Positions 32,701-38,589 of a stretch of DNA of 64,000 nt are shown piece by piece (the stretch's first letter is position 1; every line of letters begins with the position of its first letter). The notes below the pieces were generated by a model. The model ran no database searches. It was not told the DNA's origin and was given only the letters and a program-made list of their open reading frames with translations. The stretch comes from Rhodovulum sulfidophilum DSM 1374. Lineage in GTDB: Bacteria; Pseudomonadota; Alphaproteobacteria; Rhodobacterales; Rhodobacteraceae. The stretch spans positions 1,282,501 to 1,346,500 of the forward strand of contig NZ_CP015418.1 of assembly GCF_001633165.1 (NCBI RefSeq), in the 5' to 3' direction. A program made the position numbers and the translations under genes.

Positions 32701-33234
32701 TCAGGTGGCCCGGGCGAGAACGAGGCTTTCGGCGGTCGAGAGCCCGGTCGGGGCGGGATGCGCAGCGGCCTGGAAGGCCTCGAGCCTGGCAAGAAAGGCC
32801 TCGCGCCATTCGGTCGGGGTGCCTGCGCGCCGCGCATGGGCAAGCTGGTCGCGGTTGACCGAGATCAGGTCCATCGGCTGGGTATAGTCCGGGTGGCGGG
32901 CCTCGATCCCTGCGGATTGGATGGCCTCGACCAGATGCGACTGGAATTTCTCGCCATAGGTTTCGAGCCCCAGCAGAAAGTCGAAATCGTCGAAGCCGGC
33001 ATCGCGAAGCTGCTCTGCCATGGTGTCGATCTCACGCGGCGAGATGCTGGTCGTGTCGTGGCGGGCGAAGATATCGGCAATGGCCGCAGCGCCATGCGGG
33101 CGAGCCCTGGGGCCCATCTCCCCGGTTTCGGCGACCTCCTTCTCGAAGTCGGGCGAGCGGATACCGGCCATGTCCGCCTCGCGGGAATAGGTGGCGTTCC
33201 GTTGGGCGAAGGCAGTGTTGCCATGAATGTTCAT
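32701..33234 (-). CDS. Conserved hypothetical protein, mostly helical
   Basis: Soluble protein of 177 residues with no signal peptide. It opens MNIHGNTAFAQRNATYSREA, has an acidic central part (EIDTMAEQLRDAGFDDFDFLLGLETYGEKF) and ends in an amphipathic helix (EWREAFLARLEAFQAAAH). The ATG at 33234 is chosen because sequence upstream in frame lacks coding character. It lies at the left edge of a group of stress-type genes and may belong to it. I do not recognise the family. Confidence 0.6.
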   Translation of the reverse strand: MNIHGNTAFAQRNATYSREADMAGIRSPDFEKEVAETGEMGPRARPHGAAAIADIFARHDTTSISPREIDTMAEQLRDAGFDDFDFLLGLETYGEKFQSHLVEAIQSAGIEARHPDYTQPMDLISVNRDQLAHARRAGTPTEWREAFLARLEAFQAAAHPAPTGLSTAESLVLARAT

Positions 33235-33341
33235 CGCGCCTGTCTCCTCGGATATTATGGGCCCAATCATGACAGCGCCGGGTGAAGAGAAAGCTAACGC
33301 TCTCAGGCGGGGCCCGGGCTGGTAAGTCGGCCCATGGAAAA

Positions 33342-33364
33342 GGGGCCGCAAATTTGCGGCCCCC
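33342..33364 (-). terminator. Rho-independent terminator of the PRC-barrel gene
   Basis: The perfect inverted repeat GGGGCCGCAAATTTGCGGCCCC is followed on the minus strand by TTTT. It lies 27 bp behind the stop of the PRC-barrel gene. Confidence 0.85.
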
Positions 33365-33390
33365 GGTGGTTCAGTCTTTCCTTGTCGCTA

Positions 33391-34248
33391 TCAGCCCGTC
33401 CACTCGGGCAGGCTCTTCAGCGTGTCCTTGGTCTGGACGGTCGAGACCTTCAGCGCGCCATCCTCGTCATGCGAAAGCTCGAGCTCGCCATAGGCCAGCT
33501 GGACCTGCTTCGAACCGATGCCGAGGAAGCCGCCCACATCGACGATCACCTTGTCGATGCGCCCGTCATCGGTCAGCACCAGTTCGCCGATCTTGCCGAT
33601 CCGCTCGCCATTGGCGCCGATCAGGGTATGACCCTGCAGATCCTCGGCGGTCAGTTCGGCGCGTTCGGATTCGGTCAGCGGGGTGCCAAGGTTCATGCTG
33701 TCATCCGTGTCCCCGGCTGCGGCCATGTCGGAGCCTTCCGCGCCCGGTTCGATCCGGCTCTCGGACGAAGCATGCTGGTTGCCCGATCCGAGGAAGTCGC
33801 CCTCGGTATCCATCGCGGTGCGGTCATAGGCTTCCTTGCCCTCGAGGGTCGACGGATCGCCCTGGAACAGGACGAAGTACTCGCCCTGGTCATCGGAATC
33901 CGGCGCGAATTCGAGGCTGTCCATCTGCAGCGCGACTTCGCGTTCGCCCATGCCGAGGAAGCCGCCGATATCGGCGATCACGGCGTTTACCGTCCCGCTG
34001 TCGTCGATATAGACGTCGCCGATCTCGCCCACGTCTTCCCAGCTGTCGGGGGCGTCGGTCAGATCGGTCATCGACAGGCCGTCAGCTTCGCCGGTCGCGA
34101 CATAGATGCGCTTGCCGATCAGGGTGTCGGCGCTCATCGACTGGCCCGCTACCTCGACATCCGGGGCGGACGCGGCCCCCTGGCTCTGGGCGAGAACGGG
34201 CATGGCCACGAGAGTGGCAAGGGCGGTGGTCGCAAGAATACGTTTCAT
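33391..34248 (-). CDS. Exported protein with two PRC-barrel domains
   Basis: Protein of 285 residues with a signal peptide at about 1-20 (MKRILATTALATLVAMPVLA). Two PRC-barrel repeats follow: the first around residues 40-120 (IGKRIYVATGEADG to AVIADIGGFLGMGEREVAL), the second around 205-275 (LIGANGERIGKIGELVLTDDG to KVIVDVGGFLGIGSKQVQL). The linker is acidic and low in complexity. PRC-barrel proteins of this exported type are frequent members of alphaproteobacterial stress regulons. An EcfG-like promoter with one mismatch lies 55 bp upstream and a terminator follows. Confidence 0.88.
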   Translation of the reverse strand: MKRILATTALATLVAMPVLAQSQGAASAPDVEVAGQSMSADTLIGKRIYVATGEADGLSMTDLTDAPDSWEDVGEIGDVYIDDSGTVNAVIADIGGFLGMGEREVALQMDSLEFAPDSDDQGEYFVLFQGDPSTLEGKEAYDRTAMDTEGDFLGSGNQHASSESRIEPGAEGSDMAAAGDTDDSMNLGTPLTESERAELTAEDLQGHTLIGANGERIGKIGELVLTDDGRIDKVIVDVGGFLGIGSKQVQLAYGELELSHDEDGALKVSTVQTKDTLKSLPEWTG

Positions 34249-34302
34249 CTCTGAACCTCCTTGATGTGGCGGTGCCGGCCGGCTCCGCTTCCATGCTCCC
34301 CC

Positions 34303-34327
34303 AACGTGGATGGGGGCAGGAAGTTTC
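34303..34327 (-). promoter_or_regulatory. EcfG-like promoter (one mismatch) before the PRC-barrel gene
   Basis: On the minus strand GAAAC (34327-34323), 16 bp, then CGTT (34306-34303) continuing as CGTTGG. The EcfG consensus is GGAAC-N16/17-CGTT, so only the second base of the -35 differs. It is 55 bp from the start codon, a normal distance. Confidence 0.45.
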
Positions 34328-34360
34328 GTTATTTGACCTAAAAAACGTCACAGTTCGGCG

Positions 34361-34385
34361 GGAACCTGCCTGTTCTCTGTGCGTT
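34361..34385 (+). promoter_or_regulatory. EcfG-like promoter before the PLDc_N/phospholipase D genes
   Basis: GGAAC (34361-34365), 16 bp, CGTT (34382-34385), a full match to the alphaproteobacterial general-stress consensus. It would give a leader of about 260 nt before the PLDc_N gene, which includes the 16-bp repeats. Confidence 0.5.
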
Positions 34386-34575
34386 CCTGCGCGCCCGTTC
34401 CGATTTAGCGCAATTTCATGCGGCCTTCCTGCCGCCGCCCTGTATCGGCTTGGGGGATCGGCCGCAGCCATGCAGCTGCCGGGCCCGGCCTGCATCGGCG
34501 GCAAAGGGAGATCGCGGAACCGCGGCGACCCGCGGGGCGTTTACCGGAGACTGGGCATTTACCGAAGACATCGCC

Positions 34576-34632
34576 TCGGACCAATACGGCTTCGGACCAA
34601 CAGAGTTTCGTGCCAACTGGGCTTCGGGCCAA
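34576..34632. repeat. Four direct repeats with exact 16-bp period
   Basis: The core TCGGACCAA occurs at 34576 and 34592 and with one or two changes (TCGTGCCAA, TCGGGCCAA) at 34608 and 34624, always exactly 16 bp apart. The array ends 20 bp before the PLDc_N start, next to its ribosome site. The period is not a multiple of three, so it is not a coding repeat. Confidence 0.85.
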
Positions 34633-34652
34633 CGCAGAAAGGAACAACCGTC

Positions 34653-34838
34653 ATGGAAGTCACAGGGATCGGCGGTCTCATCGTCCTCGTCCTCGATATC
34701 TGGGCCATCGTGTCGGTCCTGAATTCGGGCACGGGGACCGGCAACAAGGTGCTCTGGATCCTGCTGGTCCTGCTCCTGCCGCTGGTCGGGTTCATCATCT
34801 GGCTGATCGCGGGGCCGCGCTCTGCCTCCGTGCGCTGA
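34653..34838 (+). CDS. PLDc_N-domain small membrane protein
   Basis: Sixty-one-residue inner-membrane protein with two hydrophobic helices: residues 7-24 (GGLIVLVLDIWAIVSVLN) and about 32-53 (KVLWILLVLLLPLVGFIIWLI). The ending WLIAGPR matches the PLD nuclease N-terminal (PLDc_N) family. An AGAAAGGA ribosome site precedes the ATG at 34653. It is followed 31 bp later by a phospholipase D-like gene, consistent with the family name, and both probably depend on the stress-type promoter upstream. Confidence 0.85.
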   Translation: MEVTGIGGLIVLVLDIWAIVSVLNSGTGTGNKVLWILLVLLLPLVGFIIWLIAGPRSASVR

Positions 34839-34869
34839 GCCCGGGACGAGGCCGCGCAAAGCCGACAGC

Positions 34870-36462
34870 ATGCATGGGTTCACCGAAAACAGCGCGGCGC
34901 TCGACGCCGCGACCGGCCCGGTCGAGGAGCTCGAGCTTCTGCTGACCGCGGCCGAGGCCTATCCGGCCCTCGAACGGGCGTTTCTCGGCGCGCGTCACAG
35001 CATTTCCGCAAGCTTCCGCATCTTCGACCTCGCGACCCGGCTGCGCTCGCCCGAGGCGTGCGAGATAGGGGAGGACTGGTTCGATCTGCTGGTCCATACG
35101 CTGGAGCGGGGGGTTTCTGTCCGCCTCGTGCTGACCGATTTCGATCCGATCGGCGCGGCCGACCTGCACCGGCTGAGCTGGAACGCACGCCGCAGGCTGA
35201 TCGCGGCCCGCGAGGTGGCGCGGGGCGGTCGGCTGGAGGTGCTCAGCGCGCTTCACAGCGCCCAGGCCGGTATCGGCGCAAGGCTCGCGCTCTGGCCCGG
35301 GGCGCATGCCAAGCTGCGCAGCGTGCTCGACGATCTCAATGCCCGATCCGAGTCCGACCGCCGACGGTTCCTCGAAGAGGCGCCGGGCATCGCGCGGATC
35401 ACCCGCGAGAGACCCGATGGCCGGATCGTGGCCGTGCCGGGCCTGCCCGACCTGACACCCGCGACCCATCACCAGAAGATGGCCGTGTTCGACGGGCGCC
35501 AGCTTTACGTCGGCGGGCTCGATCTGAACGAACGCCGCTATGACAGCCCCCGGCACTGCCGCGCGCCGGAACGCACCTGGCATGACGTGCATGCGATGGT
35601 GCGGGGGCCGGTGGTGACCGCCGCCGCGCAGCATCTCGACGGGTTTCTCGACATCGTGGCCGGACGGCGCCCGCCGGGACCGGCCGCACCGGGCTTTCTG
35701 CGCACCCTGTCGCGCCCGGCCCGGCGCGCGCCGTTCCGGTTCTCGCCGCGGCCTCTGGTGACCGAGATCGAGCGGGCCCATCTGTCGCGGATCGGCGCGG
35801 CCGAACGGCTGATCTATCTTGAAACCCAGTTCTTCCGGCATCTGCCGCTGGCCCGGGCCATGGCCCGCCGCGCCGAGGCAAGGCCCGATCTGCGCGCCAT
35901 TCTGGTGCTGCCCGCCGCGCCCGAGGACGTGGCCTTCGAGAACAGCAGCGGGCTTGACGTGCGCTACGGCGAGCATCTGCAAAGCCGGTGCCTGAGCCTG
36001 CTTTACGACGCCTTCGGTCCCGACCGGGTTCTGGTCCTTTCGCCGGTGCAGCCGCGGCAGCTGGCGGTCGAGGGCCGCGCCGAGCTTGAAGACGCGCCGA
36101 TCATCTATGTCCATTCCAAGGTGTCGATTTTCGACGGAGACGCGGCGATCCTGTCTTCGGCCAACCTCAACGGGCGGTCGATGCGCTGGGATACCGAGGC
36201 GGGGCTGGAACTGACCGCGCCCGCCCATGTCGATCTGATCCGCCGTCGGGTGATGGGGCATTGGCTGCCGCGCGAGGGCGACGGCGGGGTCGATCCGGCG
36301 GCGCTCGATCCCCGGACCGCCTTCGAGGCGTGGCGGGTGCTGGCCGATCTCAACAGCCGCCGCAGCCCGGAGCGGCGCGAGGGCTTTCTGGTGCATTACG
36401 ATTCGGACCCCGCCCGCAAGCTGGGCCTGCCGGTGCCGGGCGTCCCGCCCGAGATCGTCTGA
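34870..36462 (+). CDS. Phospholipase D-like / cardiolipin synthase-type enzyme
   Basis: Protein of 530 residues with two HKD catalytic motifs, HQKMAVFD (H201, K203, D208) and HSKVSIFD (H415, K417, D422), each followed by the usual G or S-rich turn (YVGG, LSSAN). Both half-sites are intact, so it should be an active phosphodiesterase or transphosphatidylase. There is no N-terminal membrane anchor, but the preceding gene encodes a PLDc_N membrane peptide that could supply one. It likely acts in phospholipid remodelling at the inner membrane under stress; this is inference from neighbours. Confidence 0.88.
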   Translation: MHGFTENSAALDAATGPVEELELLLTAAEAYPALERAFLGARHSISASFRIFDLATRLRSPEACEIGEDWFDLLVHTLERGVSVRLVLTDFDPIGAADLHRLSWNARRRLIAAREVARGGRLEVLSALHSAQAGIGARLALWPGAHAKLRSVLDDLNARSESDRRRFLEEAPGIARITRERPDGRIVAVPGLPDLTPATHHQKMAVFDGRQLYVGGLDLNERRYDSPRHCRAPERTWHDVHAMVRGPVVTAAAQHLDGFLDIVAGRRPPGPAAPGFLRTLSRPARRAPFRFSPRPLVTEIERAHLSRIGAAERLIYLETQFFRHLPLARAMARRAEARPDLRAILVLPAAPEDVAFENSSGLDVRYGEHLQSRCLSLLYDAFGPDRVLVLSPVQPRQLAVEGRAELEDAPIIYVHSKVSIFDGDAAILSSANLNGRSMRWDTEAGLELTAPAHVDLIRRRVMGHWLPREGDGGVDPAALDPRTAFEAWRVLADLNSRRSPERREGFLVHYDSDPARKLGLPVPGVPPEIV

Positions 36463-36473
36463 GGGGGGGGGGG
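36463..36473. repeat. Homopolymer run of eleven G
   Basis: Eleven G residues begin within the TGA stop of the phospholipase D-like gene, in the short convergent gap to the AI-2E-family gene. It is the second G11 run in the window. Confidence 0.8.
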
Positions 36474-36522
36474 CGATAGAAAGTCCCATCCCGCCGTGCC
36501 GCCGCTCGCGGATCTTACGACC

Positions 36523-37611
36523 TCAGGCGGTCTCGGCCGGTTTCGGGGCCGGGAGGGGTGGCTCCTCGGCCTGGGGGGCGGGGTCGTCGAAAACGTCGAG
36601 CATCGCCAGCACGATCACCAGGACCGGGATCGCAATCACCCCGCCGAGCGGTCCCCAGAACCACAGCCAGAACACCAGCGAGACGAAGATCGCAAGCGGG
36701 TTCACGGCGATCCTGCGGCCCACGAAGGTGGGGGTGACGACCTGGGATTCGATCCCGTTCAGCACCAGATAGATCACGGCGGGAAAGATCGAGGTCCAGC
36801 CGTCGAAGGCGATCAGCCCGCCGAGAAGCAGCCCTGCCACCATCGTGGCCGGCCCGACATAGAGCACGAAATTCAGCAATGCAGCCCCCGCCCCCCAGGC
36901 GATGGCGCCGGGCATGCCGAGCACCCCAAGGGCGATCGCAAGCGCGATGCCGAGCCCGGCATTGATCAGCGAAATGGTCATGAAGTAATGCGCGACCAGT
37001 CGTTCGGCGGTCCGGATACGGGTCAGGAGCGCCTCTCCTCCCAGCCGCTGACCGGCATGTCTGGCCATCCAGGCATAGATGTCGGCCCGGGTCAGAAGAA
37101 AGAAGAACAGGGCCGCGATGAAGATCAGGATCTGCGCGGCGACCCGGGGCGCCACGAAGAGCGCATCGGTCAGGCTCGGGACCGAGGGGGCGGCGGCCTC
37201 GGCGTCATTGCCATTGCCGGTGCCGCCCAGCGCGCGCTGAACCTCGTCGCCGACCTGTCCGACATTCTGCACGAATCCCCGGAAGTCGTTGACCACGCCG
37301 CGCAGTTCCCAGCGGATCGTGGGCCATTGGTCGACCATCCGCCCGACCAGCGGTTCGACCGCGAAGGCCAGCGCGCCGACCGCGATGATGCCAAGCATCG
37401 GCAGCGCCGCCGCGACCGACATCGGCGGCAGACGCAACCGCCGCTCGAGCGTGTCTGCCAGCGGCGACAGGATGATCCCCGCGACCAGCGCGAGGCAGAG
37501 CGGCGCGAAAATGTCTTCGGCAAGCTTGAGGGCGGTGAAACCGGCGACCCCGGCCAGAACCAGCAAGGCGACGCGCGACATCGGGTCGAGGCGGATTGTG
37601 GGGTCGGTCAT
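36523..37611 (-). CDS. AI-2E family (PerM/YdiK-like) membrane protein
   Basis: Polytopic inner-membrane protein of 362 residues with the family arrangement: two pairs of helices near the N-terminus, a soluble central region with a Gly/Asn/Ala-rich insert (GGTGNGNDAEAAAP), then LLNFVLYVGPATMVAGLLLGG and FWGPLGGVIAIPVLVIV near the C-terminus. The charged tail is Pro-rich. Family members have been linked to transport of signals, ions or stress protection; the substrate here is unknown. A perfect EcfG-like site lies directly before its start. Confidence 0.85.
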   Translation of the reverse strand: MTDPTIRLDPMSRVALLVLAGVAGFTALKLAEDIFAPLCLALVAGIILSPLADTLERRLRLPPMSVAAALPMLGIIAVGALAFAVEPLVGRMVDQWPTIRWELRGVVNDFRGFVQNVGQVGDEVQRALGGTGNGNDAEAAAPSVPSLTDALFVAPRVAAQILIFIAALFFFLLTRADIYAWMARHAGQRLGGEALLTRIRTAERLVAHYFMTISLINAGLGIALAIALGVLGMPGAIAWGAGAALLNFVLYVGPATMVAGLLLGGLIAFDGWTSIFPAVIYLVLNGIESQVVTPTFVGRRIAVNPLAIFVSLVFWLWFWGPLGGVIAIPVLVIVLAMLDVFDDPAPQAEEPPLPAPKPAETA

Positions 37612-37619
37612 TTGCTCTC

Positions 37620-37644
37620 AACGCGTCCGGAGGCGCCGGGTTCC
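37620..37644 (-). promoter_or_regulatory. EcfG-like promoter directly before the AI-2E-family gene
   Basis: On the minus strand GGAAC (37644-37640), 16 bp, CGTT (37623-37620). The ATG is only 9 bp further on, so the transcript would begin at or next to the start codon (leaderless) if this site is used. Confidence 0.45.
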
Positions 37645-37692
37645 GCCGGTTTGCCCCGGGTCCCGGTCTGCGGGACCGAAGGCTGCCGCGAG

Positions 37693-37718
37693 GGAACATA
37701 AACCACGGTCCGGACGTT
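37693..37718 (+). promoter_or_regulatory. EcfG-like promoter of the CsbD gene
   Basis: GGAAC (37693-37697), 17 bp, CGTT (37715-37718, continuing as CGTTGG), 33 bp before the CsbD start codon. This is a full match at an ideal distance. CsbD genes are regular members of the alphaproteobacterial general stress regulon. Confidence 0.65.
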
Positions 37719-37750
37719 GGTGGGCCGTGCAGAGAGGAAAGGAGATTTCA

Positions 37751-37951
37751 ATGAATACCGATATCTTTCAAGGTAAATGGAAACAGATCAAGGGCCGGGC
37801 CCGCGAAGCCTGGGGCGCGCTCACCGACGATGACCTGGACAAGGCCGAAGGGGACCGCGAACAGCTGGTGGGCCTGATTCAGGAGCGGTACGGCAAGGCC
37901 CGCGAAGACGCCGAGCGCGAAGTCGACGAGTTTCTGGCGAAGTTCCGCTGA
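37751..37951 (+). CDS. CsbD family stress-response protein
   Basis: Sixty-six-residue hydrophilic helical protein. The opening NTDIFQGKWKQIKGRAREAWGALTDDDLDKAEGDREQLVGLIQ is the CsbD pattern (GxWKQxKGxxKxxWGxLTDDDL). An AAAGGAGA ribosome site precedes the ATG at 37751; the longer open frame upstream runs antisense through another gene and is rejected. A strong terminator follows. The cellular role of CsbD is not known beyond its stress induction. Confidence 0.95.
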   Translation: MNTDIFQGKWKQIKGRAREAWGALTDDDLDKAEGDREQLVGLIQERYGKAREDAEREVDEFLAKFR

Positions 37952-37977
37952 TGCGGCGCGCGGACTGAGCAGATCAG

Positions 37978-38012
37978 GCGCCCCGCCCGGTTCCGGGCGG
38001 GGCGCATTTTTT
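37978..38012 (+). terminator. Strong rho-independent terminator after the CsbD gene
   Basis: The 13-bp GC stem GCGCCCCGCCCGG / CCGGGCGGGGCGC with a 2-base core loop is followed by ATTTTTT. It isolates the CsbD unit as a monocistronic transcript. Confidence 0.92.
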
Positions 38013-38211
38013 CGGCTGAATTTCTTCCCTCCCGGGGCTCTCACGGGATATTTTTCCTGATTTCAGAAGGTTGCTGATATTTTCCGCAAGACCAAGGGGC
38101 GACGGGCTGCGGGCACGGGCGTTGATGATGCTATCTTTAATGCACTTGCCGCTCTGTTCCTGTTATGATGAAGCTCCAGCGATGTTCTTGCGGAAAGGAG
38201 ACCCCCCCGAC

Positions 38212-38589
38212 ATGTCGCACGCGGCTATGCCTGTCGCGAAAGCGCACCCGACCTATGTGGTGCTCGAACGGGATGCTCTCATCTCGGCCGACCTGATCCA
38301 GGCGATCGAGTCTCTGGGGCCTTGCCGGGTGATGCACTTCTCTTCGGTCGATGAAATGGCCTCCGGCCTCGAAGGTGTCGGATCCGTCAATGCGGCCTTC
38401 CTCGAGCTCCGCCTTGACGAAGCCCTGGCAAGCGGTCTCGCTACCAATCTGGGCAAGCTCGGGGCACGTCTGGTGCTGACGCTCGGAGAGGATGTCGAAC
38501 GGGTGATGAGCGCGGGCTGCCGCCTGCTGCTGCGCCCGTTCACCGAACGCATGGTCCTTGATGCCCTGACAGAGACCGCCCCGGCCTGA
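38212..38589 (+). CDS. Response-regulator receiver-like protein with Glu at the phospho-acceptor position
   Basis: Protein of 125 residues with the layout of a stand-alone receiver domain. Beta-1 is YVVLERDALI with acidic residues E19 and D21; beta-3 is AAFLELRLDE, where E65 occupies the place of the phospho-acceptor Asp; beta-4 is RLVLTLGED with the usual Thr (T90); and RLLLRPF has R108 where Lys is expected. It may therefore be a phosphorylation-independent or permanently on receiver. The ATG at 38212 follows an AAAGGAG ribosome site; a longer start is possible. It lies behind the stress-gene group. Confidence 0.65.
   Translation: MSHAAMPVAKAHPTYVVLERDALISADLIQAIESLGPCRVMHFSSVDEMASGLEGVGSVNAAFLELRLDEALASGLATNLGKLGARLVLTLGEDVERVMSAGCRLLLRPFTERMVLDALTETAPA

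What the first reader, a model, noticed from the sequence alone, without database searches (positions are those of the whole stretch)
32701..38589. Stress-gene island with four EcfG-type promoter sites
Three exact GGAAC-N16/17-CGTT sites (34361-34385 plus strand, 37620-37644 minus, 37693-37718 plus) and one with a single mismatch (34303-34327 minus) lie before a PLDc_N/phospholipase D pair, an AI-2E-family gene, a CsbD gene and a double PRC-barrel gene. CsbD and PRC-barrel genes are known members of the PhyR-NepR-EcfG general stress regulon of alphaproteobacteria. Four such sites within 3.4 kb, three of them at fitting distances from stress-type genes, is more than casual matching. A receiver-like protein sits at the edge of the island. 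This suggests a compact envelope-protection module under one sigma factor.
Basis: partly seen in the sequence, partly recalled or inferred. Interest (0 to 1): 0.72.

Follow-up and report, generated by a model that had tools for sequence, protein, structure and literature searches.

The report
Stress genes under one master switch
A small cluster of membrane- and envelope-related genes in a purple bacterium is very probably switched on by the general stress response of its bacterial class, and its phospholipase D gene usually sits close to the genes of that switch in related bacteria, which hints that membrane-lipid cutting is a built-in part of their stress response.

Summary
In detail: three exact GGAAC-N16/17-CGTT sites and one mismatched site. 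All four exact sites of the window lie in 3.4 kb. The host is a Rhodovulum with a complete phyR/nepR-ecfG-kinase locus 146 kb away, carrying five exact sites itself. In relatives the sites recur at promoter distance: CsbD has one in 54 of 77 genomes with, and 1 of 11 without, a strong PhyR-domain hit; around PLD loci there are 386 sites against 11-39 for control patterns. New here: close relatives of the PLD (45 of 198 genomes) all occur with that hit, 35 within 10 kb of it, and in 50 of 59 loci a kinase gene lies just upstream. In Rhodovulum and Roseovarius the PLD lies downstream of PLDc_N instead, mostly with an EcfG site there. Its model is nearest human PLD1/2. EcfG control is well supported by comparison, not by transcripts. 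Caveats: genome-wide the bare motif does not exceed its reversed control (60 vs 63), and the two PLDc_N sites have weak flanks.

The parts
33391..34248 (-). double PRC-barrel protein, 285 aa, signal-peptide-like N-terminus (by eye)
   Evidence: PF05239, 2 stretches; EcfG site upstream of relatives: 10/25 exact in 300 bp, 17/26 with GNAAC..SGTT in 150 bp
34303..34327 (-). degenerate EcfG-type site before the PRC gene, GAAAC-N16-CGTT
   Evidence: sequence; GAAAC in L077 and L078, GCAAC in L088
34361..34385 (+). distal EcfG-type site before PLDc_N/PLD
   Evidence: exact; aligned counterparts in R. visakhapatnamense and R. kholense; weak flank score, rank 28 of 60
   Evidence: exact; counterparts by position at L077:9700, L078:9700, L088:9696, matched by eye, since the alignment does not line them up; weak flank score, rank 29 of 60
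34653..34838 (+). PLDc_N small membrane protein, 61 aa
   Evidence: PF13396; exact EcfG site upstream in 21/35 relatives
34870..36462 (+). phospholipase D, 530 aa, two HxKx4D motifs, no signal peptide seen by eye
   Evidence: PF00614/PF13091; first motif invariant, second invariant in H and K and at least 90% in D, over 37 sequences; model nearest human PLD2/PLD1
36523..37611 (-). AI-2E family membrane transporter, 362 aa
   Evidence: PF01594; exact EcfG site upstream in 28/41 relatives
37620..37644 (-). EcfG-type promoter of the AI-2E gene; CGTT is 8 nt from ATG, so the transcript may be leaderless
   Evidence: exact; -10 element invariant and -35 partly so in 6 species; spacing
37693..37718 (+). 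EcfG-type promoter of csbD, 32 nt before ATG
   Evidence: exact; -35 and -10 invariant in 6 species; CsbD test
37751..37951 (+). CsbD stress protein, 66 aa, the only copy found in the genome
   Evidence: PF05532 73.7 bits; single hit
38212..38589 (+). pseudo-receiver protein, 125 aa, phospho-acceptor Asp apparently replaced by Glu, Lys by Arg; linked, no EcfG site of its own
   Evidence: alignment A3; receiver-like model; 0/12 upstream sites (3 of those 12 hits are 25-31% identical and may be other receivers)

Best explanation
The island is a detached block of the PhyR-NepR-EcfG general stress regulon of a Rhodovulum. Shown here: the genome holds one complete phyR / nepR-ecfG-HisKA_2-kinase locus; the island has exact EcfG-type sites before PLDc_N-PLD, the AI-2E gene and csbD; such sites recur at promoter distance in relatives; and in many relatives several of these genes lie beside phyR-nepR-ecfG. 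Inferred: under stress the kinase phosphorylates PhyR, PhyR~P captures NepR, and freed EcfG starts transcription from the sites. That raises a phospholipase D with its small membrane partner, an AI-2E-type transporter, CsbD and probably a periplasmic PRC-barrel protein, which adjust and protect the envelope. In most of the other genera sampled the PLD gene directly follows a kinase gene behind nepR-ecfG; in Rhodovulum and Roseovarius it lies downstream of PLDc_N with an EcfG site there, so stress control seems to have been kept through the rearrangement.
For: Complete GSR locus with five exact sites; two PF22029 hits in the genome, PhyR and the sigma factor. Exact sites in 300 bp upstream: phyR 42/61, nepR 27/49, AI2E 28/41, CsbD 18/28, PLDcN 21/35, DUF883 23/30, DUF1328 21/48, ecn 6/7, against kinase 1/60 and receiver 0/12; seven control patterns gave 0-3 per gene. 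386 sites in 1.494 Mb of PLD loci vs 11-39 for controls. Unconstrained flanks agree: C after GGAAC 0.70, G before CGTT 0.80, A 8 nt after CGTT 0.62. CsbD exact site in 54/77 genomes with, 1/11 without, a strong PF22029 hit, p=1.7e-4. CsbD and that hit co-occur: both 77, CsbD only 11, hit only 17, neither 93 of 198. Within the genus, GGAACC-N15/16-CGTT vs reversed control is 192:147 in 8 genomes with PhyR and 82:133 in 8 without. PLD >=330 bits: 45 genomes, all with PF22029 >=70 bits, 35 within 10 kb. In print: csbD and ecnAB depend on EcfG in Sphingopyxis (PMC7083833, passages); a PRC-barrel gene with a GGAAC site depends on EcfG in S. melonis (PMC6599016, passages).
Against: No transcript data. 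The bare motif is not enriched genome-wide (60 vs 63 reversed). By flank score the island sites rank 16, 19, 28 and 29 of 60, so the two PLDc_N sites look weak by themselves. 23 of 77 GSR+ genomes lack an exact CsbD site. 34 of 75 PLD loci show no exact EcfG site by the routes tested, and 3 were cut. Weaker PLD relatives (100-330 bits, 19 hits) are within 10 kb of PhyR in only 5, and 6 lie in genomes without it. The PRC site is mismatched in the four Rhodovulum aligned. Two of 8 PhyR+ congeners have fewer motif hits than control hits (15 vs 19, 19 vs 37). In R. sphaeroides the phyR mutant was not significantly impaired in oxidative, heat or osmotic stress (PMC5830050, abstract), so the trigger may be narrow.
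Confidence: 0.88

Rival explanations
1. The sites are chance matches in GC-rich DNA near unrelated housekeeping genes.
For: 60 exact hits vs 63 reversed genome-wide; the PLDc_N sites have poor flank scores.
Against: Clustering, recurrence across genera with controls near zero, invariant motif columns, rarity of the site without PhyR.
Confidence: 0.04
2. The promoters are real but served by another ECF sigma factor of the cell, since GGAAC -35 elements are not peculiar to EcfG.
For: The genome has 8 sigma-70-region-2 hits; E. coli RpoE also uses GGAACTT (PMC8103513, passage).
Against: The same motif sits at phyR and nepR themselves (42/61 and 27/49), goes with PhyR within the genus and at CsbD. 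GGAAC-N16-CGTT is the published EcfG motif (PMC7083833).
Confidence: 0.06
3. Only csbD and AI-2E are EcfG genes; PLDc_N-PLD and PRC are neighbours with decayed or no EcfG control in Rhodovulum.
For: Ranks 28 and 29 of 60 for the PLDc_N sites; mismatched PRC site.
Against: The PLDc_N sites have counterparts in R. visakhapatnamense, R. kholense and, for the proximal one, R. marinum; 11 of the 12 loci L077-L088 keep an exact site within 300 bp before PLDc_N or PLD.
Confidence: 0.15

Closest known systems
PhyR-NepR-EcfG general stress response regulon (ECF15)
   Same: Core regulators, promoter motif and spacing; csbD, PRC-barrel and entericidin targets as reported for Sphingopyxis and Sphingomonas
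   Different: Target block includes a phospholipase D and PLDc_N; here the block is 146 kb from the regulators although PLD is within 10 kb of them in most relatives
R. sphaeroides phyR locus RSP_1271-1274 (PMC5830050)
   Same: phyR divergent from a nepR-like gene, ecfG and kinase (section 14 read); acts in membrane stress
   Different: GGAAC does not occur in its main text, nor 'phospholipid'; PLD not mentioned in the passages seen
Two GSR loci of Rubellimicrobium thermophilum (PMC12148442)
   Same: Also Rhodobacteraceae (recalled); the paper predicts GGAAC-N16-17-C/GGTT promoters (passage); four Rubellimicrobium loci here carry kinase-PLD behind ecfG
   Different: The word phospholipase does not occur in the main text
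Eukaryote-type phospholipase D (human PLD1/PLD2, plant PLD alpha)
   Same: Both HKD motifs; nearest fold (E 1e-26, TM 0.65) and nearest PDB sequence profile
   Different: 15-18% identity; lacks the targeting domains of those enzymes (recalled); substrate unknown

Membership tests
EcfG general stress regulon | ecfG, nepR and phyR present in the genome | tested here: met
   ecfG is named from its place and resemblance (no model called EcfG was met), NepR by Pfam only
EcfG general stress regulon | GGAAC-N16/17-CGTT at promoter distance before PLDc_N, AI-2E, csbD | tested here: met
EcfG general stress regulon | same motif before the PRC gene | tested here: inconclusive
   GAAAC here; exact in 10/25 relatives
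EcfG general stress regulon | sites recur across species above controls | tested here: met
EcfG general stress regulon | motif enriched genome-wide over its control | tested here: not met
   60 vs 63; the form with a following C, chosen, gives 29 vs 18 here and 192 vs 147 in 8 PhyR+ genomes of the genus, own included
EcfG general stress regulon | transcription depends on ecfG; start about 8 nt after CGTT | not testable with these tools
   needs RNA
Phospholipase D superfamily | two HxKx4D motifs and PLD fold | tested here: met
Phospholipase D superfamily | phospholipid-hydrolysing activity | not testable with these tools
   needs enzyme assay
Bacterial cardiolipin synthase (TIGR04265) | curated score cut-off 290 bits | tested here: not met
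   28.3 bits
PhyK kinase (NF051872) | curated score cut-off 750 bits | tested here: not met
   193.9 bits, so PhyK-like only
Receiver domain, phosphorylatable | conserved phospho-acceptor Asp and Lys | tested here: not met
   Glu in 9 of 10 and Arg in 10 of 10 aligned sequences at the positions I read as Asp and Lys, though the fold matches

The most novel reading that the evidence does not exclude
In Rhodobacteraceae the general stress response has a dedicated lipid arm: a eukaryote-type phospholipase D, encoded next to and often overlapping the sensor kinase gene, turns membrane phospholipid into phosphatidic acid under stress, and that lipid acts as an envelope signal or feeds back on the kinase, much as plant PLD alpha does in drought stress (plant analogy recalled, not tested).
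Probability: 0.12. Interest if true: 0.85.

Novelty: new variant of a known kind. Interest (0 to 1): 0.5.

Why it matters
The EcfG regulon of Rhodobacteraceae is little studied: in 2018 PMC5830050 wrote that the role of PhyR had not been analysed before in any member of the Rhodobacterales (passage), and no EcfG target list for the group showed in the listings of my ten paper searches. The recurring promoters give such a list for testing, with predicted starts. The tie between PLD and the kinase gene across many genera offers a concrete candidate for the membrane-stress phenotype of PhyR seen in R. sphaeroides.

Tried and rejected
Bare-motif counting over the genome did not help (60 vs 63 reversed). 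A heuristic coding/intergenic label of the 60 sites was unreliable, because well-supported promoters were also flagged inside spurious ORFs, so no density ratio is claimed. One search contained a slicing error for genes near a locus edge; the per-gene counts were redone, and one search is cited only for pattern totals and controls. The looser pattern GNAAC..SGTT with a 21/22 spacer, meant as a control, fires in phyR 50/61 and nepR 41/49, which I put down to the overlapping, palindromic divergent promoters there; it is no control at that place, while at the other genes it gave 0-1. Cardiolipin synthase was considered and rejected for PLD. The Pfam PqqD hit on CsbD (24.6 bits, just over its cut-off 23.4) was set aside as secondary to CsbD. 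A wider search for PLD in the class gave 3 of 289 genomes at E<=1e-40, two of them of this family, so the family is mainly a Rhodobacteraceae trait; one Afifella MAG (L145) also has ecfG and phyR next to a 38% relative. Rows dropped: the second, below-cut-off CsbD hit of one genome (101 of 102 listed places used). The class 'with PhyR' is PF22029 E<=1e-17, which may admit a few sigma paralogues; at 1e-19 the CsbD co-occurrence is 76/12/11/99.
Full report
WHAT WAS CLAIMED.

OBSERVATION. The three exact sites and the one-mismatch site are present at the stated coordinates. A further exact site, 34516-34541(+), was missed. The four exact sites are the only ones in 64 kb; 1 of 100 shuffles reached four. 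With 60 exact sites in the 4.35-Mb genome, 0.05 are expected in this 3358-bp span, P(>=4) = 1.9e-7 at a fixed place, roughly 1e-3 for such a cluster anywhere. Genome-wide, however, the bare motif equals its reversed control (60 vs 63), so single hits mean little. Pfam confirms PRC-barrel, PLDc_N, PLD, AI-2E and CsbD; CsbD has a single hit in the genome.

HOST AND REGULATOR. PLD is 85% identical to those of Rhodovulum visakhapatnamense and R. kholense. The PhyR place of the R. kholense genome is the same as that of a same-genus genome, so the host is a Rhodovulum. At 1463030-1466494 of contig 1, 146 kb from the PLD gene, lies a full locus: phyR (NF006623, 342 bits, cut-off 240), nepR (PF18557, 56 bits, cut-off 25.7; NCBIfam's NepR model only 20 of 100 bits), an EcfG-like sigma factor (nearest solved chain 5uxx, E 2e-53) and a HisKA_2 kinase, flanked by DUF883-like, DUF1328 and entericidin genes. 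Five exact sites sit there, two of them overlapping head to head between phyR and nepR. PF22029 answers only at PhyR and this sigma factor in the genome.

COMPARATIVE TEST 1, LOCI. From 75 PLD-bearing loci of named genomes, 60 carry ecfG, 61 phyR, 49 DUF1328, 41 AI-2E, 37 PLDc_N, 28 CsbD and 27 a PRC protein within the fetched DNA of up to 21.7 kb. In the 1.494 Mb there are 386 exact sites against 11-39 for seven control patterns. Upstream 300 bp with an exact site (corrected): phyR 42/61, nepR 27/49, AI-2E 28/41, CsbD 18/28, PLDc_N 21/35, DUF883 23/30, DUF1328 21/48, entericidin 6/7, PRC 10/25, PLD 16/72, ecfG 21/60 (by their distance mostly nepR's), kinase 1/60, receiver 0/12. Among 188 sites the spacer is 16 (98) or 17 (90). 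Positions not fixed by the search are also biased: C after GGAAC 0.70, G before CGTT 0.80, and A at the 9th position after CGTT, that is with 8 nt between, 0.62, still 101 of 165 when AI-2E sites are left out. That A is a fitting transcription start.

COMPARATIVE TEST 2, GENOMES. In 198 genomes of the family, one per genus, CsbD occurs in 88 and a strong PF22029 hit (E<=1e-17, in the main PhyR) in 94; both 77, CsbD only 11, hit only 17, neither 93. Within 200 bp of CsbD an exact site is found in 54 of 77 genomes with that hit and 1 of 11 without (p=1.7e-4); control patterns of the exact kind 0-1 of 77. The one exception, G028, is an 86%-complete genome, so its PhyR may simply be missing from the assembly. 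The sites peak 57-63 bp before the start codon. The genomes are related, so these p values are optimistic. In 16 Rhodovulum genomes, 8 have PhyR (at least 88 bits) and 8 do not; GGAACC-N15/16-CGTT against its reversed control is 192:147 in the first group and 82:133 in the second. Two PhyR+ genomes (15 vs 19 and 19 vs 37) go against the trend.

THE ISLAND SITES. In the AI-2E/CsbD gap of six species (four Rhodovulum, two Roseovarius) the csbD site is invariant in both elements, and the AI-2E site in its -10 and partly in its -35, where one species has a spacer one base longer; 10 of 14 such divergent pairs have exact sites both ways. The proximal PLDc_N site has counterparts by position in three other Rhodovulum, the distal one aligned counterparts in two. 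The PRC site is GAAAC or GCAAC in four Rhodovulum; GGAAC and GCAAC are the two commonest -35 boxes in the EcfG promoters of Sphingopyxis (PMC7083833, passage). Against this, a flank score trained on relatives puts the window sites at ranks 16, 19, 28 and 29 of the genome's 60, while four of the five GSR-locus sites rank in the first five.

PLD AND THE STRESS LOCUS. PLD relatives of at least 330 bits occur in 45 of 198 genomes; all 45 have a PF22029 hit of at least 70 bits. PLD lies within 10 kb of it in 35, on another contig in 7, and farther on the same contig in 3, this genome included (p=1.8e-18 for co-occurrence). Weaker relatives (100-330 bits, 19 hits) are within 10 kb in 5 and in genomes without such a hit in 6. 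Of 59 named loci with ecfG, kinase and PLD all found, 50 have a kinase upstream of PLD on the same strand. Taking the candidate start nearest the kinase stop, 44 of these 50 overlap or lie within 60 nt, 16 of them by the usual 1 or 4 nt; 2 are farther and 4 gave no candidate start. In 48 of the 50 ecfG is on the same strand too. These kinases are mostly only 32-37% identical to that of Rhodovulum, so they are relatives, not necessarily the same kinase. In the 12 loci L077-L088 (Rhodovulum, Roseovarius, a Pseudohalocynthiibacter and an unplaced MAG) PLD is not behind the kinase; where PLDc_N was found it lies upstream, 31 nt away in the window and up to about 1.4 kb in Roseovarius, and 11 of 12 have an exact site before PLDc_N or PLD. 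R. marinum (L088) keeps island and regulators together in about 10 kb; R. robiginosum (L079) keeps PLDc_N, PLD and the receiver gene there, but CsbD, AI-2E and PRC were not found in its locus. The split seen here is thus probably derived; a second Rhodovulum shows it too (motif groups near 3.24 and 3.39 Mb, PhyR in the first). PF22029 was also sought in the genomes of the 15 loci without ecfG and of L079 and L088: 17 of 17 have a hit, of which 16 strong and 1 (L137, a MAG) weak. PLD has both HxKx4D motifs; its model (pLDDT 93.6) is nearest human PLD2/PLD1, then plant PLD alpha and Pseudomonas PldA, and sequence profiles agree. It is far below the cardiolipin synthase cut-off.

MECHANISM. Shown: genes, motifs, recurrence, linkage. 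Taken from the literature: PhyR~P releases EcfG from NepR (PMC5830050, passages). Inferred: stress raises PLD, PLDc_N, AI-2E transporter, CsbD and probably the PRC protein to protect the envelope. It fits that R. sphaeroides PhyR mattered for membrane stress and that only membrane stress raised its ecfG mRNA (PMC5830050, passages); the same paper found no significant role in heat, osmotic or oxidative survival.

NOVELTY. EcfG control of csbD, entericidin and PRC-barrel genes is known. Searches for EcfG with phospholipase D and general stress response and for phospholipase D with alphaproteobacteria and general stress response found no paper in the held library, and PhyR with phospholipase D and sigma factor two that look unrelated from their listing. 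The library lacks most subscription journals, so this is not proof that the PLD link is unreported.

Wording of several counts was mended against the calls (kinase-PLD gaps, the R. robiginosum locus, the genomes, invariance of the AI-2E site, weaker PLD relatives).

Noticed in passing
37611-37644 (-): CGTT lies exactly 8 nt before the AI-2E ATG here and in several Rhodovulum, Roseovarius and Roseicyclus loci, so the predicted start is the A of ATG and the mRNA may be leaderless; some other genera have a leader with a GGAG-like ribosome site.
   Followed up: partly
38212-38589: Pseudo-receiver (Asp to Glu, Lys to Arg) kept beside the island or the stress locus in Rhodovulum, Roseovarius and a Pseudohalocynthiibacter; possible fixed-state partner of the GSR phosphorelay.
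   Followed up: partly
L030 (contig 1, 1806558- and 1806638+): Divergent exact motif pair between a diacylglycerol-kinase-like gene and a BrkB-type membrane gene; a second lipid enzyme with a possible EcfG site.
   Followed up: partly
L029:1587-2144 and L006:1181-1711: Exact motif sites before a DJ-1/PfpI gene and a DUF308 membrane gene, further candidate targets.
   Followed up: partly
L045:6872-6903: phyR and nepR sites overlap head to head and form a near-palindrome; a similar +/- pair about 31 bp apart is seen in many PLD loci.
   Followed up: partly
genus Rhodovulum, 16 genomes: No PhyR-strength hit in 8 of 16 genomes, a natural experiment for what the system buys.
   Followed up: partly
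32701-33264 (-): 187-aa ORF without Pfam hit; relatives of about 50% identity found only beside the island of two sister species among the 75 loci.
   Followed up: no
contig 1, near 2479300 and 3110887: Two ECF-like sigma genes with the same first 90 residues and equal scores, apparently duplicated.
   Followed up: no
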